Source: Variovorax paradoxus (GTDB lineage Bacteria; Pseudomonadota; Gammaproteobacteria; Burkholderiales; Burkholderiaceae_C). From it: 64,000 nucleotides of DNA. This document shows, piece by piece, positions 1,557-11,966 of the stretch. Within the stretch, counting starts at the first letter, position 1; every line of letters begins with the position of its first letter. The stretch covers positions 4,986,501 to 5,050,500 of the forward strand of contig NZ_CP123990.1 in NCBI RefSeq assembly GCF_029919115.1, read 5' to 3'. The position numbers were made by a program, and so were the translations under genes. The notes beneath the pieces were generated by a model. It worked only from the letters and a program-made list of their open reading frames with translations. It was not told the origin of the DNA and made no database searches.

Positions 1557-1763
1557 ATGTACATGGCCAAGTCCATTCGCACTACAGTCTCTGCTCCTGA
1601 AGAGCTGCATGCTGCGTTGGGAAAGGCGGTTGAGACCTTCGGCCCTACCGTTTGGGCAACCCGACAAGCATCACAGCGGCCTTTCGGAGAAGAAGAACAA
1701 CTTACGTCGGTTTCTAGCTCAACCGTTACCGGACGCGATGCCAAGAAAACCAAGGGTAAATGA
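1557..1763 (+). CDS. Small hypothetical protein coupled to the methyltransferase gene
   Basis: A 68-residue ORF with no family I recognise. Its TGA stop overlaps the ATG of the downstream cytosine methyltransferase gene as ATGA, the usual sign of translational coupling. The N-terminal part (MAKSIRTTVSAPEELHAAL) loosely resembles ribbon-helix-helix proteins, and the C-terminal end is basic (DAKKTKGK). The ATG at 1557 follows AGGG with 5-6 bases spacing; ATG 1563 is an alternative. It could be a regulator of the restriction-modification genes, which is inference from position alone. An overlapping antisense frame (1544-1753) is the rival reading. Confidence 0.5.
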   Translation: MYMAKSIRTTVSAPEELHAALGKAVETFGPTVWATRQASQRPFGEEEQLTSVSSSTVTGRDAKKTKGK

Positions 1764-2857
1764 TGCGCTCCGAAGATTTCAAAGCCACGGAGGCTGAGTC
1801 ACGCTGCGGCGCACCAGACACATCCAGTTCGCGAATCGAACATCAGAAGCCTCCAGCTTCGCAGAAAAAACTTCCGAAGATCGTCAGCCTCTTCTCTGGC
1901 GCCGGCGGACTCGATCTAGGATTCAAAAAGGCAGGCTTCACCATCTCGGTTGCGATTGATGCTTCCGACGCCGCGATTCGCACACACAAGCAGAACTTTC
2001 CCCGCACCAAGGCTGAGGTAGGAGACCTCGTTAAGTTGCAGCCTGCCGGAGTTGTCGAGCTGGTTCAAAAGAAGCTGAAACCTGGGCAAGCCATCGCGGT
2101 GATTGGAGGGCCTCCATGCCAAGGCTTCTCGCGAGCGAACACCGGGGCACTAACTAGTGACCCTCGCAACAAGCTTCCGAAGCTGTATCTTCAGATCGTG
2201 GAAGCACTTCAAGCACTGTATACGGTTGAGTTCATCGTATTTGAGAATGTGCTCGGCATCCGCGACAAGAAGCATGCAAAAACCTATAAGGCACTGAAAG
2301 ACGGCATTGCCGGGCTTGGCTTCGATGTGACAGAAAAAGAACTCTGTTCCGTTGATTTCGGAGTGCCTCAAAACCGCCGACGCATCATCCTGTCTGGGAT
2401 GCGGAGCGGACAGGGTTACGCGACCGTCAAACCACGCAAGCGCAAGGGTTTGGAAACTGTTCGCCAAGCGATCGGAAGCTTAGAGCAGCCCATGTACTTC
2501 AAATATGGGCTTAAACCAGAGGATATTCCTGTCCATCCTAACCATTGGACGATGCAGCCAAGATCTCCGCGCTTTGACAATCCGGACGCAGAGGCGGCCG
2601 ACGGACGCAGCTTCAAACGTCTGAATTGGAATAAAGCAAGTCCAACCATCGCATTCGGACATCGAGAAATCCATGTACATCCAGATGGTCGGCGTAGGCT
2701 CAGTATCTATGAAGCGCTGCTATTGCAAGGCTTCCCTAAGACATTCGTTCTTGTAGGCAATTTATCAGAGCAAGTTGAGCAAGTCTCCAATGCTGTTCCT
2801 CCCCCGCTAGCGCACAGTGTTGCTACCGCGGTGAAGCGAGCGATGCGGGGCGGGTAG
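1760..2857 (+). CDS. DNA (cytosine-5)-methyltransferase
   Basis: Transfers a methyl group from S-adenosylmethionine to cytosine C5 in a specific DNA sequence. The 365-residue protein shows the family motifs in order: motif I FSGAGGLDLGF (45-55, SAM binding), motif IV GGPPCQGFS (117-125, catalytic Cys120), motif VI FENV (161-164), motif VIII QNRRR (204-208), motif IX in the segment before LQGFP, and motif X with SNAVPPPLA near the C-terminus. The target-recognition region is short, about residues 215-285, so specificity cannot be read. It starts inside the preceding small ORF and is followed after one base by the GHKL ATPase gene, so the genes form an operon. GC is well below the backbone. Confidence 0.96.
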   Translation: MMRSEDFKATEAESRCGAPDTSSSRIEHQKPPASQKKLPKIVSLFSGAGGLDLGFKKAGFTISVAIDASDAAIRTHKQNFPRTKAEVGDLVKLQPAGVVELVQKKLKPGQAIAVIGGPPCQGFSRANTGALTSDPRNKLPKLYLQIVEALQALYTVEFIVFENVLGIRDKKHAKTYKALKDGIAGLGFDVTEKELCSVDFGVPQNRRRIILSGMRSGQGYATVKPRKRKGLETVRQAIGSLEQPMYFKYGLKPEDIPVHPNHWTMQPRSPRFDNPDAEAADGRSFKRLNWNKASPTIAFGHREIHVHPDGRRRLSIYEALLLQGFPKTFVLVGNLSEQVEQVSNAVPPPLAHSVATAVKRAMRGG

Positions 2858-2858
2858 C

Positions 2859-4814
2859 ATGGCGCTCACTCCCGAGCAGGCGCTCGTTAAACGCATCCGT
2901 GCAAGCCATGGGCCTGAGAGCATTGTCCCTGCTGTTCTGAAAACAGACGACAGAGTTATCGCGCGGGTCACGGATGGCATCTACCGCCAACCTGGTTCAG
3001 CACTACGTGAACTCATTTCGAATGCCTACGACGCCGACGCCACGCGCGTAATCATCAAGACAGACGCTCCGCGGTTCGAGCGTATTTCCGTAGAAGACGA
3101 CGGACATGGCATGGAGCCAGAGGCCTTAGCTCATCTGCTATTGCATATCGGCGGAAGCGCAAAGCGGAACGAACTCGGCTCATCATTGGGCGTCACGGCA
3201 GCTGACGATCCGACGCGAAGTCCTGGAGGCCGACGTTTGATCGGCAAGATTGGCATTGGCCTCTTCTCGGTCTCGCAGCTCACGCACACATTTCAGATCA
3301 TCACGAAGGTCAAAGGCGATGACCACCGAACTGTCGCCACGGTGGCCCTGCGCCAGTACGCAGACGAAGACATCGTTCCGGATCAGGACGGTGAGAAGAA
3401 ATTCGAATCAGGCAAGGTGAACATCTGGCGCGAAAAGGCCGCAGATACGGAAATTCATGGTACGACGATTATTCTGACTAGTATCCGTCCGCAAGCCCGC
3501 GATACTTTGCGCAGCCGCGACATCTGGAGTGCAATCGACCAAAACGAATCGCAGTCTGACGCCGAAGAGCAGTCGATTATTGATCCTCCGCGCTTCCACA
3601 TCGGCCGCGTCGATGAAAGCGGGGATTTGCTGAAGGAAACCGCAGGGGAGCTGTCTGCGCTTCCCTGGAAAAAAGGGGATCCGCCAGATGAAGCATTCGC
3701 GAAACTGGCGCAAAGTGTTTGGGAGGAGGCGGAGCACTCCACGCCGAACCCGCAGCTTGATCGTATTTTTGACTACTACCTGCGCATGGTGTGGCAATTG
3801 AGCTTAGCGGTCCCGCTTCCATACGTTGACGGCCACCTGTTCGACATGGATCTCAATGGCTGGGCCGAAGCGTTCACGCTGTCCAATCAACCAAAAGGCT
3901 CGGCGACAAAACTGGACGCTGGGGGTGCACCCCTTCGGAAGAAGGCAGGACTTGAAGATCCGGTCGGATCGATCGGGAAATTCGAAGTGTTCTTCGATGA
4001 TCTGCAGTTGGCGAGGCCAGTCAAATTCAGGGGCCTGCCGGCAACAAACAATGCTCTCAAGCACCCACTGGTGTTCATCGGAAAGTGCAGGGAGGAGTTC
4101 AAAAAAGTACCGAGGGCATTGAGCGGTGGCCCGCTTGCGTTCGAGGCCTATCTTTTCTGGACACCAAAGGTCGCACCTGTCGAACATCAGGGCTCCTTAG
4201 TACGTATCCACGGATCCAGCGGCACGCTGTTTGACTCTACCTTTATGCGCTACCAGGTGTCGGAACAGACCCGGTTACGGCAGATTACCTGCGAGATCTT
4301 TGTGAGTGAAGGGCTAGACAGCGCGCTAAACATCGATCGAGAGTCATTCAATCACGCACATCCTCACTCTGTTTACCTGACGAAATGGCTTCATAGCGCT
4401 TTGAGGCAGCTTGCCTCAGCGCAGAAGCGGCTCGCAAGCGAAGTCCGAGGACAAACGCGCGATGAGAGCAAAGGCGTAGCTGTTTCAACAATCCAGAGCG
4501 TCGCCAGCAAGATTTGGAGCCAAGAAGCCGATGATCCCGGAGCGCATCCTCCGGCTATCGAACTATCAACGACCGGCCGAAAAACGGAAGCGACAGGAGA
4601 GGCGTACGTGTACTCACGCGCCGCGATCGTCCCGGAGCGACCGCGAGGAGCTCAGACTGCAAAGACCAAGGCGCGAAATGCCATTCTTGAAGAAAAACTG
4701 AAAGCCATTGCGCAGGTTCTCGCATCGTTTGGACTGCTGGATTCAGTACCAAAGCGCAAGCAAGAAAAGCTGCTCAAGGCCATTTATGAAATTCTTGACG
4801 CGCCAGGAGAATGA
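2859..4814 (+). CDS. GHKL (MutL/MORC-like) ATPase of a restriction-modification cluster
   Basis: A 651-residue protein with an N-terminal Hsp90-type ATP-binding fold: N-box ELISNAYDADA (51-61), G1 motif DDGHGM (80-85) and G2 motif GKIGIGLFS (129-137). The long middle and C-terminal parts have no motif I recognise. GHKL ATPases of the MutL/MORC group are known to occur beside cytosine methylases and Vsr nucleases in bacterial restriction-modification islands, where they are thought to act as ATP-driven DNA clamps or switches. That role is inferred here from the neighbours. The start lies two bases after the methylase stop, and the stop overlaps the next start as ATGA, so expression is tightly coupled. 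Confidence 0.88.
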   Translation: MALTPEQALVKRIRASHGPESIVPAVLKTDDRVIARVTDGIYRQPGSALRELISNAYDADATRVIIKTDAPRFERISVEDDGHGMEPEALAHLLLHIGGSAKRNELGSSLGVTAADDPTRSPGGRRLIGKIGIGLFSVSQLTHTFQIITKVKGDDHRTVATVALRQYADEDIVPDQDGEKKFESGKVNIWREKAADTEIHGTTIILTSIRPQARDTLRSRDIWSAIDQNESQSDAEEQSIIDPPRFHIGRVDESGDLLKETAGELSALPWKKGDPPDEAFAKLAQSVWEEAEHSTPNPQLDRIFDYYLRMVWQLSLAVPLPYVDGHLFDMDLNGWAEAFTLSNQPKGSATKLDAGGAPLRKKAGLEDPVGSIGKFEVFFDDLQLARPVKFRGLPATNNALKHPLVFIGKCREEFKKVPRALSGGPLAFEAYLFWTPKVAPVEHQGSLVRIHGSSGTLFDSTFMRYQVSEQTRLRQITCEIFVSEGLDSALNIDRESFNHAHPHSVYLTKWLHSALRQLASAQKRLASEVRGQTRDESKGVAVSTIQSVASKIWSQEADDPGAHPPAIELSTTGRKTEATGEAYVYSRAAIVPERPRGAQTAKTKARNAILEEKLKAIAQVLASFGLLDSVPKRKQEKLLKAIYEILDAPGE

Positions 4815-5986
4815 TGAGCGACGCAGTGCCAGAGGCTGAAAATCACGCAGACGATATTGTCGGATTGGGTGAATACGAAGCGCCGACGCCAATGGCAACT
4901 AAGGGAGAGTTCTTGCCTTGGCACCGCCCCCGCAAGCAGTATGTACGGCATCATCAGTGGTGCCACGAAGTCATCAAGCTCATTGTGGATAAGCCACTTG
5001 CGGACGGGGTTCTTAAATACCTGGGCCTCCCAGGCGTTGATCTACTCGATCTTCGGCATTTTCACTCAGCGGTATGCGAAGCGAATGATGTAAACCTGCG
5101 CTTTCTCGGATTTAACAGCAGCGCTCAACCTCGAAGCAAGGCGCACACCGAATTAAACATCTCGCTAGACGAGGTCATGCGTCTTCCCCGTGTCGATCCA
5201 ATGTCGCATGTGCTTGGTGATAATTTCGCGCGAATCGCCAATCACAAATCGATTGCATTTGCTAAGGCGTGTGAATTAGGGCCTTACGATGTCATTAACC
5301 TTGATTTATGCGATGGGTTCGGCGCCCAAGCACCCGGTACACTAGACAACAGCTACTACGACGCGGTAACTACCTTGTTCTCGCTGCAGGCGCGTACGAA
5401 GGCTCCTTGGCTTCTTCTACTTACAACCCGCGCCGACAAGCCCAATATTAATGACAAGGTTCTTGAGGCACTTCTAGCAAAGTACTTGGCTAACTTGACG
5501 GAATGTGTGCCTTTTCGTGAGGCATCGCGCGACCATTTCGCGATTGAAACTGAAATCGCTTTGACGGCTGCAATCGGAACAGCAGGAGGGTTGCTTCCGG
5601 TATTTTTGACTGGTCTTTGTAAGTGGTTTGTGGCACTTGCTTTGCAGAACCAACCGCCAACCTCCGTCGAGCTGCTCAGCGTTTTTGGATATCGTGTCGA
5701 AAAGGAAGCCGAACACGAAGATCTGGTTTCGCTCGCATTGAAATTTACTCCAACATTCATTCCTGCAGGAGACCCTTTGGGACTGGCGAACCCGCCAGGT
5801 CCCAGACCGGACGAAGGCTCGATGGCGACCAAGGCGCTGCGGCGAGTTGCCAAACGTATTGATGCCGACAAAAAACTGGCAAGTGACGCTGAACTACACA
5901 AAAAAATGGTTGATGCGACGACGCATTTGCTGAGCCTCGCCCGTTATGACGTTGAGGCATTCAAGCTATGGGTTCAGGCACCCTAA
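4811..5986 (+). CDS. Uncharacterised protein, third gene of the methylase/GHKL operon
   Basis: A 391-residue soluble-looking protein with no signal peptide or membrane helix. I do not recognise a named domain. Residues about 75-170 alternate predicted strands and helices in a Rossmann-like order: GVDLLDLRHFHS, then NLRFLGFNSS, then YDVINLDLCDGFG. This resembles the strand 1, strand 2 and strand 4 regions of SAM-dependent methylases or three-Cys-motif partner proteins, but without a clear glycine-rich SAM loop. It starts inside the ATPase stop codon (ATGA) and its stop overlaps the convergent vsr gene by 4 bp. Position suggests an obligate partner of the methylase and ATPase; activity is unknown. 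Confidence 0.8.
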   Translation: MMSDAVPEAENHADDIVGLGEYEAPTPMATKGEFLPWHRPRKQYVRHHQWCHEVIKLIVDKPLADGVLKYLGLPGVDLLDLRHFHSAVCEANDVNLRFLGFNSSAQPRSKAHTELNISLDEVMRLPRVDPMSHVLGDNFARIANHKSIAFAKACELGPYDVINLDLCDGFGAQAPGTLDNSYYDAVTTLFSLQARTKAPWLLLLTTRADKPNINDKVLEALLAKYLANLTECVPFREASRDHFAIETEIALTAAIGTAGGLLPVFLTGLCKWFVALALQNQPPTSVELLSVFGYRVEKEAEHEDLVSLALKFTPTFIPAGDPLGLANPPGPRPDEGSMATKALRRVAKRIDADKKLASDAELHKKMVDATTHLLSLARYDVEAFKLWVQAP

Positions 5987-6387
5987 TGCTGCATGAAGGC
6001 CTGCAGTTTTTCTTCTAGACCATCAAGGCGGCGAATTTCGCACTCCCATAGCTCTAGCACAGTCCAACCTTGATCAATTAGTGCGGCAAGGTTTCGCACA
6101 TCGCGCGCACGATTTGCTTCGATCTTGACGCTCCAATAACCTTCGTTTGACTTCGGTTTAGATGCCAAACGGCACGTATGGCCGTGCCAGAAGCACCCTT
6201 GAATCAGCACAATCTTGCGGTGGCGTGGAAGCACGATATCGGGTCGACCGGGGAGATCCTTGCGATGAAGCCGGAAGCGGAAACCCATTCGATGCAGTAG
6301 CGAACGAATTACCATCTCGGGCTTCGTGTTCTTGCTTCTTATCCGGCTCATTAATGCGGACCGTTCAGCCGGCGTCATCGTATCCAT
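5983..6387 (-). CDS. vsr: Very short patch repair endonuclease
   Basis: Nicks DNA 5' of the thymine in T:G mismatches formed by deamination of 5-methylcytosine, protecting the sites of the cytosine methylase. At 134 residues it has family length. Visible features are the N-terminal MSRIRSKNTKPE segment, catalytic Asp50 in GRPDIVL, and CFWHGHTC (65-72) holding the Phe-Trp-His intercalating and catalytic residues plus zinc ligands. It is transcribed towards the methylase operon and overlaps the 391-aa gene by 4 bp at their 3' ends. Companionship with a C5 methylase is the usual genomic setting. Confidence 0.95.
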   Translation of the reverse strand: MDTMTPAERSALMSRIRSKNTKPEMVIRSLLHRMGFRFRLHRKDLPGRPDIVLPRHRKIVLIQGCFWHGHTCRLASKPKSNEGYWSVKIEANRARDVRNLAALIDQGWTVLELWECEIRRLDGLEEKLQAFMQH

Positions 6388-6604
6388 TTAACTACTCCTA
6401 AAATAGTTCAGATAGAGATATAAGAAGACCGTCCACCGGCGGCTGCAATGCGTCGAATGTGGTGCGCCTTGAATGTGAAGCCCCTTAATAATCTTTTCGG
6501 GCCAACGATGGATGCAATCAACCCCCAGCTTCATTCAAGCTCAGACTTTGCGATCGCGGAATGGGGACGCTTTAGCTTCTGCCTCGCAGAAGTTTACGAG
6601 TCCG

Positions 6605-7804
6605 TCAGGCGGGCCATTCACCAAGCAGCTCACCAACCCGCTCAACTGAGCCATAGCCCGCTTGGATCAGGATTTCAGCGATGTCTCGCCCACTAATGAG
6701 AACGATGGGATGCCGGTCATCCCGTACCTCGGTGTAGGCTTGCCGAGCGATCACGGACGTCGTGACCAATACGCCGAATTGGCGATGCCGGATGCGCGAT
6801 ATCAACCGCGCGACCTCGCGTACACCCACTGTGTTTGCCGACACATCTCCAGAACTAGGCCGATAGCACTTCGCCTCCAACGCGAACTCTGCGTATACGG
6901 GATCAGCGCTCAGGCCTAACAAATATCGACCGATTGCATCTCGTCCGCCATCGACACTGCCTCTGGTGATCTCGTCAATGATCACGCGCCTATCCGTCAA
7001 CTGATATATCCGTGCAGCGAACGATTCGAAGGCGAGAGGCGAGTCTTTAAAGTGAGACCAGACGCGCTCCAAAATCGCGGCCTTGAGCGATGTGTCCGGC
7101 GTCTGCTCACCCTCCGTCCGAATCACCTTCGTGGGCTCGGAGGTCAGCGGGCTGTATGCGCCCGATTCAACCCAAGAGCGCCACGTACTTGGTGCGGTTG
7201 CCAATGAGATTTCTTGAGAGGCAAGGCTGTCGATCCACTGGCGCGGAATGGTGGCCGCATTGAGCACCGTGAACACCGACCGGTAGTTCTGAAACCGCTC
7301 GCCTGAAGTCGTCTTCCACACGGCCACCAAGTCCTCCGTCATGGGCAACCCTGGAAATCCGGGCACGGCAAGCCCCTTGAATTGGACGGAGCGGTTGCTT
7401 TTCGCTGTCGGGCACTTGGTGAAAACGAAGAACGGAGGGACCTGCGATCTTTTGGCCGCGTCTCCATGCGCATTCTCGAAGGCCGCCTTCAGGATGAGAT
7501 TGCCGCGACGCGTCGTGTCATGAAGGTCGTGCCCCGGCGTGCGGTTGTCGCCGTAGTACACGAACTGACCAGTGTTGAGGTCCAAGCGATCCGGCCAATC
7601 CCCTTCTTCGCCGCTGGAGTAGAGAACGACGAACTTCTTCCTCGTTCCCGCGCCCGATGCACGAAAACCGCCTTGATTGCCCGCGCCCGGCAGCAGTTTG
7701 GCGATCGGATCGCTGCCGGTGTTGCGAGCGCTTCCGCCCTCATAGATCGCATCCACCACGAGATCCGCGGTCGGTAGATCCTCGAAGCTGAATATGCGGG
7801 TCAT
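6605..7804 (-). CDS. AspBHI-like restriction endonuclease with Mrr-type catalytic domain
   Basis: A two-domain nuclease of 399 residues from the ATG at 7804. The N-terminal half resembles the AspBHI N-terminal (SRA-like) domain: VVDAIYEGG, then WPDRLDLNTGQFVYYGDN and GHDLHDTTRRGN. The C-terminal half has the Mrr/PD-(D/E)xK pattern: VDGGRD (284-289), ALEAK (308-312, catalytic Glu and Lys), and GVLVTTS. AspBHI itself cuts DNA containing modified cytosine. Whether this homologue needs modification or instead is the restriction partner of the adjacent methylase cannot be told. No clear ribosome binding site precedes 7804; a TTG at 7876 would add 24 residues. It lies in the same orientation as vsr, 217 bp downstream of its start. 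Confidence 0.8.
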   Translation of the reverse strand: MTRIFSFEDLPTADLVVDAIYEGGSARNTGSDPIAKLLPGAGNQGGFRASGAGTRKKFVVLYSSGEEGDWPDRLDLNTGQFVYYGDNRTPGHDLHDTTRRGNLILKAAFENAHGDAAKRSQVPPFFVFTKCPTAKSNRSVQFKGLAVPGFPGLPMTEDLVAVWKTTSGERFQNYRSVFTVLNAATIPRQWIDSLASQEISLATAPSTWRSWVESGAYSPLTSEPTKVIRTEGEQTPDTSLKAAILERVWSHFKDSPLAFESFAARIYQLTDRRVIIDEITRGSVDGGRDAIGRYLLGLSADPVYAEFALEAKCYRPSSGDVSANTVGVREVARLISRIRHRQFGVLVTTSVIARQAYTEVRDDRHPIVLISGRDIAEILIQAGYGSVERVGELLGEWPA

Positions 7805-8037: not shown

Positions 8038-8451
8038 GTGACTGAAGAAACCAGCGCAGAGCGAAGCGCTCCCCTTGTCGATGTGACACGGCTGGCCGCG
8101 AAGCTCGAGCAATTCGCCACTGAGCGCGACTGGACCCAATTCCATTCCCCGAAAAATTTGGTGATGGCCTTGACCGGCGAAGTCGGAGAACTGAACGAGA
8201 TCTTTCAGTGGATGTCCGAGGAGGCCTCCAAAGAGGCTGGCCGCGATGCTCAGACCGCGAAGGCCATTCAGGACGAGCTTGCGGACGTTCTGCTCTACCT
8301 TGTTCGGCTCTCTTCGGTTTTGGATGTCGACCTGAACGCTGCGGTTCAGCAAAAACTAGAGGCCAACGCCAAGCGATATCCCGCTGACAAAGTGCGGGGA
8401 AGCAGCAAGAAGCACGGCCAACCCGAATCTGGCGGGTCCGGGAAGGACTGA
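8038..8451 (+). CDS. MazG-like nucleotide pyrophosphohydrolase
   Basis: All-alpha NTP pyrophosphatase of 137 residues, expected to hydrolyse (d)NTPs to monophosphate and pyrophosphate with Mg2+. The metal-binding signature ExxE...ExxD is present: EVGE at 48-51 and ELAD at 80-83, with the typical LLYLVRL helix following. It resembles the dCTPase/RS21-C6 branch more than the two-domain housekeeping MazG. A GTG start at 8038 follows a good CAGGAG (8025-8030). The next gene starts two bases after its stop, so the pair is an operon. Pairing with a nuclease-helicase in a defence region suggests nucleotide-pool control during infection, which is inference. Confidence 0.88.
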   Translation: MTEETSAERSAPLVDVTRLAAKLEQFATERDWTQFHSPKNLVMALTGEVGELNEIFQWMSEEASKEAGRDAQTAKAIQDELADVLLYLVRLSSVLDVDLNAAVQQKLEANAKRYPADKVRGSSKKHGQPESGGSGKD

Positions 8452-8452
8452 C

Positions 8453-10330
8453 GTGATCGTCTACCAAGCCGATAAGAAGCAGTTTCTCAGCGACAACAAC
8501 GACAGGGAGATCGAGGACGTCATCCTGGCTAAATACACGAGCGCGACAGGACGAAAGGTGTCCGTCTCGGAAGTGAAGTCGTGGAAAGAATCGCTGAAGT
8601 ACATGTCGCAAATTCTTAGCGACCCAGATATCTCGAATGACATCGGCATCGCGGTTGAGCTGCATATTCCGCAAAGCTCCAAACGCATCGACATCAGTCT
8701 GACGGGGCGGGGCCATGACGACTCGAAGAACATCGTGATCGTCGAGTTGAAACAATGGACCACTGTGCAGCAGTCGGCAAAGGACGCGATTGTCAACACC
8801 TACCTCGGCAGCAGAATGCGAGAGGTAGTCCACCCGTCCTATCAGGCTTGGTCTTACGCATCGCTGTTAGAGGGCTTCAACGAAGCCGTCCACTGCGGCG
8901 ATATTTCAGTTCGAGCCTGCGCGTCTCTACATAACTATGAGCGCGATGGCGTAATCGACGCTGATCACTACGCCAGCTACATTGCCAAGGCGCCACTCTT
9001 TCTGCGAGGCGACGCCGAACGGATCTTGCTGCGTAACTTCATCAAGCAGCACATTAGGTTTGGCGATCCCGGCGTTCTGTATGAACTAGTGAACGGAAGA
9101 ATCAGACCCTCGAAGGCACTAAGCGACAGTCTCGCCGGATTGTTAAAGGGCAACACTGAGTTCATCTTGATCGATGACCAGAAAGAGGTCTACGAACACA
9201 TCCTTGCTGCAGGACAAGCAGCCTCAACTGCAAACCCGAAAGTGGTGATCGTCGAAGGTGGGCCGGGAACAGGTAAGACCGTGCTGGCCATCAATGCGCT
9301 TGTCGCGCTGACAACGAAAGGCTTGAACTGCAAGTACGTTTCAAAGAATGCCGCGCCGAGACGCGTCTACGAAACTAAGCTCGCAGGCACGATGACTCGC
9401 ACTCGCTACTCGAATCTCTTCACCGGCTCGGGTGGCTTCATCGAGACGCCCAGCGACACGTTCGATGTGCTGATCGTGGACGAGGCCCACCGCCTGAACG
9501 AGAAGAGCGGTCTGTATGGCAACCTCGGTGAAAACCAGGTCAAGGAACTCATCGCCGCAGCCAAGTGCACTGTGTTTTTCATCGATGAAGACCAACGCGT
9601 GACGTTGAGCGACATCGGGACCAAAAAAACCATTCGCGATTTCGGCATCAGCAAGGGCGCGGAGGTGTCGGAACACGAGCTGGCCTCTCAGTTCAGGTGC
9701 AGTGGTTCGGACGGCTACATCGCGTGGCTGGACGACACGCTCGACGTTCGGCCAACAGCAAACAAGATGCTCACTCCCGCTGAGTTCGACTTCAAGGTCT
9801 TCAGCGCACCCGATGAGCTTCACGCATCGATCGCAGAGAAGAACAAGTCAGGCACCGCCCGCGTTGTCGCTGGTTATTGCTGGCCATGGACCAGCAAGAA
9901 AGACCCAAAGGCTTTCGACATCGTCATTGGTGAATATCGCAAGCGATGGAACCTGGAGGTCGATGGAAGCCTTTGGATCATCGCGCCGAACTCAATCAAC
10001 GAGGTCGGCTGCATCCACACCTGCCAAGGTCTTGAGGTGGACTACATCGGCGTGATCATCGGACCAGACTTGATCGTGCGTGACGGGCTCGTCAAGACGG
10101 TGCCGAGTGCGCGGGACCGACACGACAAGACCTTGCGTGGTTACAAGGTTCGGCTTAAGGCAGATCCGAAGAAGGCTACCGCGGAGGCGGACCTGATCAT
10201 TAAGAACACATACCGCACGCTGATGACACGAGGCATCAAAGGGTGCTACGTCTACTGCAGTGACGAAGAGACCGCGAGTTATTTCCGTTCGCGGCTAACG
10301 GCGGAAGCGCTTGCCGCCGTGCAGCCATGA
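8453..10330 (+). CDS. Nuclease-helicase fusion (DUF2075-type superfamily 1 NTPase)
   Basis: A 625-residue protein with two recognisable parts. The N-terminal region has a PD-(D/E)xK-like pattern, RIDISL (Asp80) followed by IVELKQW (Glu98, Lys100), with a later conserved-looking HPSYQAWSY helix. The C-terminal region is an NTPase/helicase core: Walker A GGPGTGKT (269-276), Walker B VDEAH (342-346), a Gln-rich sensor motif DEDQR, and late motifs around CQGLEVDYIGV and NTYRTLMTRG typical of DUF2075 (COG3410-like) proteins. GTG at 8453 follows GGAAGGA. Coupling to the MazG-like gene suggests one functional unit. Substrate and trigger are unknown; defence function is inferred from family and location. 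Confidence 0.85.
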   Translation: MIVYQADKKQFLSDNNDREIEDVILAKYTSATGRKVSVSEVKSWKESLKYMSQILSDPDISNDIGIAVELHIPQSSKRIDISLTGRGHDDSKNIVIVELKQWTTVQQSAKDAIVNTYLGSRMREVVHPSYQAWSYASLLEGFNEAVHCGDISVRACASLHNYERDGVIDADHYASYIAKAPLFLRGDAERILLRNFIKQHIRFGDPGVLYELVNGRIRPSKALSDSLAGLLKGNTEFILIDDQKEVYEHILAAGQAASTANPKVVIVEGGPGTGKTVLAINALVALTTKGLNCKYVSKNAAPRRVYETKLAGTMTRTRYSNLFTGSGGFIETPSDTFDVLIVDEAHRLNEKSGLYGNLGENQVKELIAAAKCTVFFIDEDQRVTLSDIGTKKTIRDFGISKGAEVSEHELASQFRCSGSDGYIAWLDDTLDVRPTANKMLTPAEFDFKVFSAPDELHASIAEKNKSGTARVVAGYCWPWTSKKDPKAFDIVIGEYRKRWNLEVDGSLWIIAPNSINEVGCIHTCQGLEVDYIGVIIGPDLIVRDGLVKTVPSARDRHDKTLRGYKVRLKADPKKATAEADLIIKNTYRTLMTRGIKGCYVYCSDEETASYFRSRLTAEALAAVQP

Positions 10331-10668: not shown

Positions 10669-10968
10669 TTGTCGGTACTTGCAAAGCGCCTAAAGGCCGC
10701 TCGACTTCGGGCCGGCTTGTCTCAGGAGAAGTTGGGAATCATGGCCGGCATCGACGAGATGTCATCGAGCGCCAGAATGAACCAATATGAGCGGGGCAAA
10801 CACGCGCCGGATTGGTTGACCGTGGAGCGACTGGCTGCTGTGCTCAACGTCCCAGTCGCTTACTTCTACGCCACGGATGACGATGCGGCAGAACTGCTGC
10901 TCGCCTTCTACGCGCTCGCGCCCGATGCGCGTGGTCGTGCGCTTGAGTTGATCAAGACAATGTCGTGA
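10669..10968 (+). CDS. XRE-family helix-turn-helix regulator
   Basis: A 99-residue DNA-binding protein. Residues about 5-60 form the Cro/CI-type helix-turn-helix (LKAARLRAGLSQEKLGIMAG, then the recognition region ending NQYERGKHAP and LTVERLAAVLNVPVAYFY). The C-terminal tail is short and helical with no separate ligand domain. The start is TTG 10669 with AGGGGTG upstream. It is the last gene of the accessory island, ending 29 bases before the pta ATG. Likely role: autoregulation and control of the divergent small gene or the defence genes, by analogy to similar regulators. Confidence 0.88.
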   Translation: MSVLAKRLKAARLRAGLSQEKLGIMAGIDEMSSSARMNQYERGKHAPDWLTVERLAAVLNVPVAYFYATDDDAAELLLAFYALAPDARGRALELIKTMS

Positions 10969-10997
10969 TCCAAGAACGCCCGTCCACCGGAGCCCGC

Positions 10998-11966
10998 ATG
11001 CCGCCCTCTTCCCCTTCTCCTTCCCCCTCCACCACCCACCCCCACTACGACCGCCTCATCACCGCAGCCCGCGCCCTCCCACCGCTCCGCGTCGCAGTCG
11101 TCCACCCAGCCAACGCCGTCTCCCTCGAAGCAGCCCTCGCTTCAGCCGCCCTCGGCCTCATCGCCCCCACGCTCATCGGCCCTCGCGCAAAAATCGAAGC
11201 CCCGGCACGCGAGGCGAATGCAGACCTTTCCAACATCCCCATCGTCGACGCCCCTCACAGCCACGCCGCAGCCGACGCGGCCGTGGCCATGGCCTTGCGC
11301 GGCGAGGTCGATGCGTTGATGAAGGGCAGCCTGCACACTGATGAGTTGATGGGCGCGGTGGTGCGGCGCGAGGGCGGGCTGCGCACGTCGCGGCGCATCA
11401 GTCACTGCTTTGTGATGGACGTTCCGGGGCACCCTCAGCCGCTCATCATTTCCGACGCGGCCATCAACATTGCGCCCACGCTCGATGAAAAGGTCGACAT
11501 CGTGCAGAACGCGATCGACCTTGCGCATGCGCTGCAGATGCCAGCGGTGCGGGTGGCGATTCTCTCGGCCACTGAAACGGTGAGCACCAAGGTGCCTTCC
11601 ACGCTGGATGCGGCGGTGCTGTGCAAGATGGCCGACCGCGGGCAGATTACCGGGGCAGAGGTCGATGGGCCGTTGGCCATGGACAACGCCATCGACCCGG
11701 AGGCGGCACGCATCAAGGGCATCGTGTCGCCGGTGGCGGGCCGCGCCAATGTGCTGATCGTGCCCAGCCTGGACGCGGGCAACATGTTGGCAAAGAGCCT
11801 CACCTTTCTGGGCGGGGCGTATGCAGCGGGCATTGTGCTGGGCACCCGGGTGCCGGTCATCCTGACCAGCCGGGCCGACTCGGAGCCGGCGCGCCTGGCC
11901 TCTTGCGCGGTAGCGTCGATGCTGGCCAAGGCGGGGCGCGAGCGACTCATCAAGGCGGTGGGCTGA
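10998..11966 (+). CDS. Phosphate acetyl/butyryltransferase family protein
   Basis: Transfers acyl groups between CoA and phosphate, making acetyl-phosphate (or propionyl/butyryl-phosphate) for acetate kinase. The 322-residue product matches the single-domain PTA_PTB family: ALMKGSLHTDELM, DAAINIAPTLDEKVDI, SATETVSTKVPST and GPLAMDNAID are visible signature stretches. The N-terminal MPPSSPSPSPS stretch is low complexity. I chose ATG 10998 because GGAG lies 5 bases upstream; a GTG at 10965 overlapping the XRE stop is the alternative. An acetate kinase gene lies 6.8 kb away on the other strand. GC-rich again, so the backbone resumes here. Confidence 0.9.
   Translation: MPPSSPSPSPSTTHPHYDRLITAARALPPLRVAVVHPANAVSLEAALASAALGLIAPTLIGPRAKIEAPAREANADLSNIPIVDAPHSHAAADAAVAMALRGEVDALMKGSLHTDELMGAVVRREGGLRTSRRISHCFVMDVPGHPQPLIISDAAINIAPTLDEKVDIVQNAIDLAHALQMPAVRVAILSATETVSTKVPSTLDAAVLCKMADRGQITGAEVDGPLAMDNAIDPEAARIKGIVSPVAGRANVLIVPSLDAGNMLAKSLTFLGGAYAAGIVLGTRVPVILTSRADSEPARLASCAVASMLAKAGRERLIKAVG

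What the first reader, a model, noticed from the sequence alone, without database searches (positions are those of the whole stretch)
1557..7804. Methylase-GHKL ATPase-unknown-Vsr-nuclease cluster: a composite DNA-defence system
Five genes form a compact unit: cytosine-C5 methylase, MutL/MORC-like GHKL ATPase and a 391-aa unknown in one operon with overlapping stops and starts, then Vsr convergent by 4 bp, then an AspBHI-like nuclease. GHKL ATPases next to C5 methylases and Vsr are documented as a recurring theme in restriction-modification islands, but how the ATPase and the third protein contribute to immunity is not settled. The tight coupling of methylase, ATPase and unknown suggests that they work as a complex. 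The region is also visibly lower in GC than the flanks.
Basis: partly seen in the sequence, partly recalled or inferred. Interest (0 to 1): 0.75.

Follow-up and report, generated by a model that had tools for sequence, protein, structure and literature searches.

The report
Mobile methylase–GHKL–methyltransferase-fold cassette
Three tightly coupled genes (a DNA methylase, a clamp-like ATPase and a protein of unknown function that is predicted to fold like a methyltransferase) recur together in bacteria and in phage-type DNA, and probably act against foreign DNA in a way that has not been tested here.

The parts
1760..2857 (+). C5-cytosine DNA methyltransferase (DCM), first gene of the cassette
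   Evidence: PF00145 165.8 bits; TIGR00675 above cut-off; motif I, PPCQ, ENV, QxRxR and C-terminal motif patterns present in the window copy
2859..4814 (+). GHKL ATPase with S5-type transducer domain, second gene
4811..5986 (+). 391-aa PP_RS20740-family protein with predicted class I methyltransferase fold, third gene, ATGA-coupled to the GHKL gene
5983..6387 (-). Vsr mismatch endonuclease; accessory, convergent, 4-nt overlap with the third gene
   Evidence: TIGR00632 148 bits; Vsr in 4 of 25 relatives
6605..7804 (-). AspBHI/MspJI-type modification-dependent restriction nuclease: neighbour, not judged part of the cassette
   Evidence: RE_AspBHI_N 215 bits, Mrr_cat 49.7 bits; PADLOC mREase_II 534 bits; 0 of 25 cassette relatives
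8038..8451 (+). MazG-like protein: separate neighbouring module
   Evidence: PF12643 45.9 bits; a DNA match covering most of it and the helicase gene lies near the same tRNA-Thr flank in relative L077
8453..10330 (+). Schlafen group 3 helicase-type protein: separate neighbouring module
   Evidence: PF09848 335.5 bits; 77% DNA identity over 2.5 kb in L077
1078..1153 (+). tRNA-Thr(CGT), left edge of the island
   Evidence: ARAGORN; flank comparison with six genus relatives

Best explanation
A mobile three-gene, methylation-linked defence cassette. Step 1 (shown by family and motifs): the DCM looks like an intact C5-cytosine methylase; inferred: it marks its own sites in the host. Step 2 (inferred from ATGA coupling and co-divergence): the GHKL ATPase and the 391-aa protein form a stoichiometric complex. 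Step 3 (inferred from folds): the 391-aa protein, with a methyltransferase-like Rossmann core and a strongly conserved basic N-terminal motif (WHxPRK), is the site- or methylation-state reader, perhaps still binding a cofactor. The GHKL protein closes as an ATP-driven dimer clamp on DNA lacking the mark, as MutL and MORC do. Step 4 (unknown): the trapped DNA is then silenced by entrapment, or cut by a nuclease activity that sequence does not reveal. Vsr, when present, repairs T:G mismatches left by deamination of the methylated cytosines. AspBHI and MazG-SLFN helicase are independent cargo of the same tRNA-Thr hotspot.
For: Census of 25 contigs: GHKL within -47 to +8 nt of the third gene in 23 of 25 (2 begin at the gene), DCM in 20 of 25, 17 of these on the same strand upstream of GHKL. 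Pairwise-identity correlation over 17 triplets: DCM/GHKL 0.935, DCM/391 0.934, GHKL/391 0.969, Mantel p 0.0001 for each. DCM patterns PPCQ, ENV and QxRxR in 17 of 17, motif I and the C-terminal motif each in 15 of 17 by my strict patterns. GHKL ATP-site boxes and the NIDRES motif kept in 17 of 17 by eye on the alignment. Folds. Mobility: ten IMG/VR viral contigs, integrase adjacent in six (two by PHROGs family, four by near-identical start of the neighbour); integrase also near the L005 and L031 copies; island absent next to the tRNA-Thr in three close relatives. Rare and scattered: 2 of 398 phylum genomes and 2 of 299 family genomes, own genome included, yet record titles name Proteobacteria, Bacteroidetes, Verrucomicrobia and Actinobacteria (some by genus only).
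Against: No experiment shows defence. The third protein's SAM loop is not the standard glycine-rich one, so a methylase-like role is uncertain. L013 has no DCM although upstream sequence is present; L017 has none either, but its GHKL gene is itself incomplete; L015, L031 and L032 carry the DCM on the other strand. Phage-linked cargo need not be defence. The only paper that names the family's reference gene reports a mutation and overexpression affecting furfural tolerance in P. putida (passages). Co-divergence can partly reflect shared vertical history, and several of the 17 rows are close relatives.
Confidence: 0.58

Rival explanations
1. ATP-dependent restriction-modification with a hidden nuclease: the 391-aa protein or the GHKL C-terminus (residues ~530-651) carries an unrecognised catalytic site and cuts unmethylated DNA.
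For: GHKL proteins of R-M operons usually work with nucleases (Iyer 2008). The 391-aa family has invariant N163 and D165 (with near-invariant C167 and D168) after strand 4 and near-invariant T205/T206/R207 at strand 5, the usual active edge of a Rossmann sheet.
Against: The listed PDB-fold hits are methyltransferases, methyltransferase-like GRAS domains and one spermidine synthase, no nuclease. In the GHKL C-terminus only Q619, L627 and I642 are invariant past residue 530 among 28 sequences; the near-invariant ones are mostly hydrophobic. The last 120 residues were not folded or searched alone.
Confidence: 0.2
2. The GHKL protein is a HgiDII/BbrUII-type restriction enzyme and the operon is an ordinary type II R-M system.
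For: Best NCBIfam hit is NF050001; similar length; next to a C5-methylase.
Against: 69.6 bits against a cut-off of 550, only residues 42-215 aligned. Profile comparison with a cut-off-passing member (L046) aligns only residues 40-212, the GHKL module. It does not explain the third gene.
Confidence: 0.06
3. Five genes, including Vsr and AspBHI, form one composite defence system.
For: They are adjacent in the window and share low GC.
Against: AspBHI near 0 of 25 relatives, Vsr near 4 of 25. AspBHI in 1 of 61 related genomes, the window's own.
Confidence: 0.04
4. The second and third genes are a two-component-like signalling pair, as proposed for HEF_HK/Response_reg_2 beside C5-methylases.
For: Same gene order, DCM-GHKL-third gene-Vsr.
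Against: No PF19191 or PF19192 hit in the window proteins; hhalign probability 0.1 between the two third-gene families; the model is a methyltransferase fold.
Confidence: 0.03
5. Not defence: a phage or island epigenetic device (self-modification of the element, silencing of its own genes, or stabilisation of the element).
For: Frequent location next to a phage integrase; MORC-type ATPases silence and compact DNA in eukaryotes (starts of abstracts).
Against: Also found on bacterial contigs of several phyla where I saw no phage gene apart from the integrases named, although I did not scan all neighbours; in the window it shares an island with a restriction nuclease.
Confidence: 0.09

Closest known systems
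TCS-like HEF_HK / Response_reg_2 operons beside C5-methylases (Bellieny-Rabelo 2021, PMC8011034; outline, passages and text parts 2-4 of 7 read)
   Same: Gene order C5-methylase, HATPase_c_3 GHKL protein, third gene, often Vsr downstream; scattered over phyla.
   Different: Their GHKL has HEF_HK and usually a second HATPase_c (about 1000 aa in six of my loci); the third protein has REC-type acidic residues. Ours is ~650 aa without HEF_HK, and the third protein shows no profile similarity and models as a methyltransferase fold.
MORC/paraMORC ATPases of restriction-modification operons (Iyer 2008, PMC2292703; text parts 1-3 of 4 and passages read, figures not seen)
   Same: GHKL plus S5 module, neighbouring C5-methylase and Vsr, lateral mobility.
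NCBIfam NF047698 PP_RS20740 family
   Same: The 391-aa protein is a member (374 bits, cut-off 200).
   Different: The model's name and description state no function.
BbrUII/HgiDII restriction enzymes (NF050001)
   Same: N-terminal GHKL module, similar length; a C5-methylase partner is recalled for HgiDII.
   Different: Rest of the protein does not align.
Class I SAM-dependent methyltransferases (Trm1 and others) and GRAS domains
   Same: Overall predicted fold of residues ~30-361.
   Different: 5-13% identity in the VIA list, 16% at most in the Foldseek list; loop reads Y(L/F)xLP instead of the usual glycine-rich motif.

Membership tests
NF047698 PP_RS20740 family | Whole-protein score over the curated cut-off (200 bits) | tested here: met
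   374 bits, residues 23-389
paraMORC/MORC R-M operons | GHKL ATP-binding motifs intact | tested here: met
   N, G1, G2 boxes in 17 of 17 on the alignment; strict text patterns missed N in 2 and G1/G2 in 6 because of single conservative changes
paraMORC/MORC R-M operons | C-terminal S5-fold domain after GHKL | tested here: met
paraMORC/MORC R-M operons | Linked SFII helicase (about 70% of MORC operons) | tested here: inconclusive
   None found among window genes or the 20 neighbours scanned; the SLFN-g3 helicase in the window is a separate module; not all neighbours were scanned
paraMORC/MORC R-M operons | MORC-specific GhXhhpXXRhl motif in S5 | not tested
   -
HEF_HK/Response_reg_2 pair | PF19191 HEF_HK domain in the GHKL protein | tested here: not met
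   No hit at E 0.1
HEF_HK/Response_reg_2 pair | PF19192 domain in the third protein | tested here: not met
   No hit; own genome has no match; hhalign probability 0.1
BbrUII/HgiDII family | NF050001 score over 550 bits | tested here: not met
   69.6 bits
BbrUII/HgiDII family | Homology beyond the GHKL module | tested here: not met
   hhalign of A2 with one member, L046, covers residues 40-212 only
Class I SAM methyltransferase (third protein) | Seven-stranded Rossmann-type core | tested here: met
Class I SAM methyltransferase (third protein) | Canonical glycine-rich SAM motif I | tested here: not met
   Loop after strand 1 is Y(L/F)(G/S/T)LP(G/A)x(D/E)xLD in 17 of 17; the canonical motif is recalled
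Class I SAM methyltransferase (third protein) | SAM binding and methyl transfer | not testable with these tools
   -
C5-cytosine DNA methylase | PF00145 over cut-off and catalytic PC/ENV motifs | tested here: met
   165.8 bits; motifs
Vsr | TIGR00632 over cut-off 97.85 | tested here: met
   148 bits
AspBHI/MspJI type | RE_AspBHI_N plus Mrr-type catalytic domain | tested here: met
   215 and 49.7 bits
Anti-phage defence system | Shown to reduce phage or plasmid entry | not testable with these tools
   -

The most novel reading that the evidence does not exclude
A nuclease-free restriction system. A MORC/MutL-type ATP clamp and a methyltransferase-fold partner that has become a methylation reader recognise DNA lacking the DCM mark and shut it down by entrapment or compaction instead of cutting it. 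It is carried by temperate phages and islands against competing DNA, and would be a bacterial counterpart of MORC silencing of unwanted DNA.
Probability: 0.27. Interest if true: 0.87.

Novelty: new variant of a known kind. Interest (0 to 1): 0.57.

Why it matters
Bacterial relatives of MORC have been described beside methylases since 2008, but in the papers I read their role is inferred, not tested. This cassette is small (three genes, about 4.2 kb) and its partner protein now has a predicted fold. A member of the partner family, PP_RS20740, is in the laboratory strain P. putida KT2440; whether its methylase and ATPase lie beside it was not checked. The question whether a MORC-like ATPase can restrict DNA without a nuclease thus becomes directly testable. 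If the methyltransferase-fold protein reads methylation, it would also show how a modification enzyme can turn into a sensor.

Tried and rejected
Two-component reading of the third gene: rejected by Pfam, profile comparison and fold. HgiDII-type enzyme: only the GHKL module is shared. The NF050001 genome search was uninformative below its cut-off: 218 of 229 genomes and 10 of 14 control genomes ring, presumably through MutL and Hsp90, and 1 of 229 is over the cut-off. Plasmids and isolate phages: no tblastn match of P0003 or of the diverged L057 copy at E 1e-5 in PLSDB or INPHARED; only IMG/VR contigs hold it. Repeated tRNA end as attachment site: one copy in the window, so none was found. Solved structures: no sequence relative of the third protein in the PDB at E 1. 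REC and nuclease folds do not appear among the listed fold matches; that is no proof of absence. The viral fold library gave weaker, mixed matches (polymerase L proteins, SAM methyltransferases, unnamed ones). The first co-divergence run used a wrong ORF for L065 (DCM correlations 0.75 and 0.76); corrected.

Dropped rows: the 17-row co-divergence set is 16 loci plus the window; left out were L006, L012, L017 and L062 (split or incomplete GHKL), L013 and L015 (no DCM, or a distant one on the other strand), L016 (near copy of L009), L059 and L064 (no GHKL on the contig). L012, L016, L017 and the viral loci are not in A2 or A3; L006, L031 and L032 are in A3 but not in A2. A1 used 30 of 120 listed homologues (752 found); A2 used 18 of 120 listed (2633 found). 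Of the neighbour ORFs listed (one of L015), 20 were scanned with Pfam; of those, 15 with PHROGs. Six of 24 genus relatives were fetched at the tRNA-Thr flank. The 25 census contigs are not all independent: L009/L016, L059/L064 and L057/L058/L060/L062/L063 are close to each other. The contig-length test (41 of 119 distinct lengths shared, own genome included, 1-3 after shifting; 119 of 120 GHKL rows typed) is indirect.

Papers: searches found no description of this cassette as a defence system; most subscription papers, supplements and figures are not held. PMC8011034: outline, passages, text parts 2-4 of 7. PMC2292703: text parts 1-3 of 4 and passages. PMC9630843, PMC12137116, PMC12907096, PMC13092281: passages; in the last, a figure legend lists HATPase and REC among domains of predicted systems. 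PMC4499157: a find with no hits, otherwise the start of its abstract. MORC and MspJI papers: listings and starts of abstracts.
Full report
WHAT IS THERE. The window is bases 4986501-5050500 of a single-contig 5.81-Mb genome. A low-GC island (52-58% per kilobase, against 63-71% in most other kilobases) runs from about the tRNA-Thr gene (1078-1153) to about 11 kb, further than the finding's 7804. It holds: a DUF2158 gene on the minus strand and a 68-aa ORF (1557-1763), DCM 1760-2857, GHKL ATPase 2859-4814, a 391-aa protein 4811-5986, Vsr 5983-6387 on the minus strand, an AspBHI-type nuclease 6605-7804 on the minus strand, a MazG-like gene 8038-8451, a Schlafen-group-3 helicase-type gene 8453-10330, and an HTH gene 10669-10968. 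Junctions: DCM/GHKL 1-nt spacer, GHKL/391 ATGA overlap, 391/Vsr 4-nt tail-to-tail overlap.

THE ISLAND IS AN INSERTION. I fetched the tRNA-Thr region of six of 24 genus relatives. In L074, L075 and L076 the same flank (96-97% identical) is followed within about 1.2-3.5 kb by the gene that lies at 10965-11966 in the window, with no blastn match to the island; L078 and L079 also show none, L079 with about 14 kb of other DNA in between. In L077 the flank is followed by the MazG–helicase pair only (77% over 2.5 kb). So the site is a hotspot and the MazG–helicase pair is a separate module. No duplicated tRNA end was found. By protein search the third gene occurs in 1 of 41 relatives, the window's own genome, and AspBHI in 1 of 61, again the own.

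THE CONSERVED UNIT IS THREE GENES. I collected 25 further contigs with the 391-aa gene: 13 from the genome collection, 2 from whole-genome family searches, 10 from IMG/VR. Some are close relatives of each other. The GHKL gene lies immediately upstream, same strand, at -47 to +8 nt, in 23 of 25; the other two contigs (L059, L064) begin at the start of the third gene. A C5-methylase is found in 20 of 25: 17 on the same strand upstream of GHKL, 3 (L015, L031, L032) on the other strand. It is missing in L006 (GHKL cut off near the contig end), L059 and L064 (contig ends), L017 (GHKL incomplete) and L013. Vsr is found in 4 of 25 (L008, L015, L031, L032) and AspBHI in 0 of 25. Among listed protein homologues, 41 of 119 distinct contig lengths (own genome included) are shared between the 391-aa and GHKL lists against 1-3 for shifted lengths (indirect). 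Over 17 triplets, pairwise identities correlate at 0.935 (DCM/GHKL), 0.934 (DCM/391) and 0.969 (GHKL/391), Mantel p 0.0001 each. The third protein changes fastest: mean pairwise identity 0.33 against 0.45 for GHKL and 0.49 for DCM.

WHERE IT TRAVELS. Of the ten viral contigs, five have integrase–DCM–GHKL–third gene (L057 by PHROGs; L058, L060, L062 and L063 by a near-identical start of the same neighbour), with the next predicted ORFs mostly on the opposite strand (in L060 one 87-aa same-strand ORF overlaps). In L062 the GHKL gene is split. L065 has an integrase just behind the third gene. L056, L059 and L064 carry a phage tail gene of PHROG 52; calling them P2-like is my recall. L061 showed only a phage family of unknown function. 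L005 and L031 also have an integrase nearby. Two actinobacterial copies have HNH-type genes nearby: L013 one clear and one below cut-off, L015 one below cut-off. Among the 20 neighbours scanned no nuclease was common to the loci; not all neighbours were scanned.

HOW IT MOST LIKELY WORKS. Shown: methylase and GHKL with intact-looking catalytic motifs, a translationally coupled, co-diverging partner with a predicted methyltransferase fold, mobility. Inferred: DCM protects self DNA; GHKL and third protein form the restriction arm; the third protein reads sequence or methylation; GHKL clamps DNA. Open: whether DNA is cut. Eukaryotic MORCs trap and compact DNA (starts of abstracts), which makes a nuclease-free mode thinkable. 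Vsr would repair deaminated 5mC; in Caulobacter a Vsr-like protein is functionally linked to a cytosine methylase encoded elsewhere (passages).

WHAT IS KNOWN. Iyer and colleagues (2008) described MORC and paraMORC ATPases in R-M operons with methylases, Vsr, nucleases and mostly SFII helicases. Bellieny-Rabelo and colleagues (2021) described C5-methylase–GHKL(HEF_HK)–Response_reg_2 operons, often with Vsr next. The present operon has the same order but a different third gene (hhalign probability 0.1) and a shorter GHKL protein without HEF_HK. In the samples searched, Response_reg_2 is also the commoner of the two: 10 of 398 phylum genomes against 2 of 398. In the searched library the family name occurs in one paper, on furfural tolerance of P. 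putida. I found no paper treating this cassette as defence in searches; this does not exclude subscription papers, figures or supplements.

VERDICT. Observation confirmed; interpretation partly supported. It is a new variant of a known kind (GHKL-linked R-M operons) with an uncharacterised third component, moderately interesting now and highly interesting if it restricts without a nuclease.

Noticed in passing
window 1557-1763: A 68-aa ORF overlaps the DCM start by ATGA.
   Followed up: partly
window 6605-7804 beside 1760-2857: A modification-dependent (AspBHI-type, recalled to need methylated cytosine) nuclease sits beside an active-looking C5-methylase; host survival implies that their sites do not coincide, or that one is silent.
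   Followed up: no
window 8038-10330 and L077 5043-7543: A MazG-like gene plus Schlafen-group-3 helicase-type gene recur near the same tRNA-Thr flank in a relative without a match to the DCM cassette; possible separate defence module.
   Followed up: partly
L062 2246-4230; L012 444-2302: GHKL gene split into two ORFs in these copies (possible decay or sequencing error); left as is.
   Followed up: no
L013 4582-11523; L015 3475-5988: Actinobacterial copies have HNH-type genes nearby and a NOV_C protein (L013) or a 299-aa Vsr-domain protein (L015); neither has the usual adjacent same-strand DCM.
   Followed up: partly
P. putida KT2440 PP_RS20740 (literature): A V338F change and overexpression of this family member were reported to raise furfural tolerance; unexplained by any defence role (passages).
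   Followed up: no
L079 7698-12122: A 1474-aa ORF lies between the same tRNA-Thr flank and the right-hand flank gene in another relative; not analysed.
   Followed up: no
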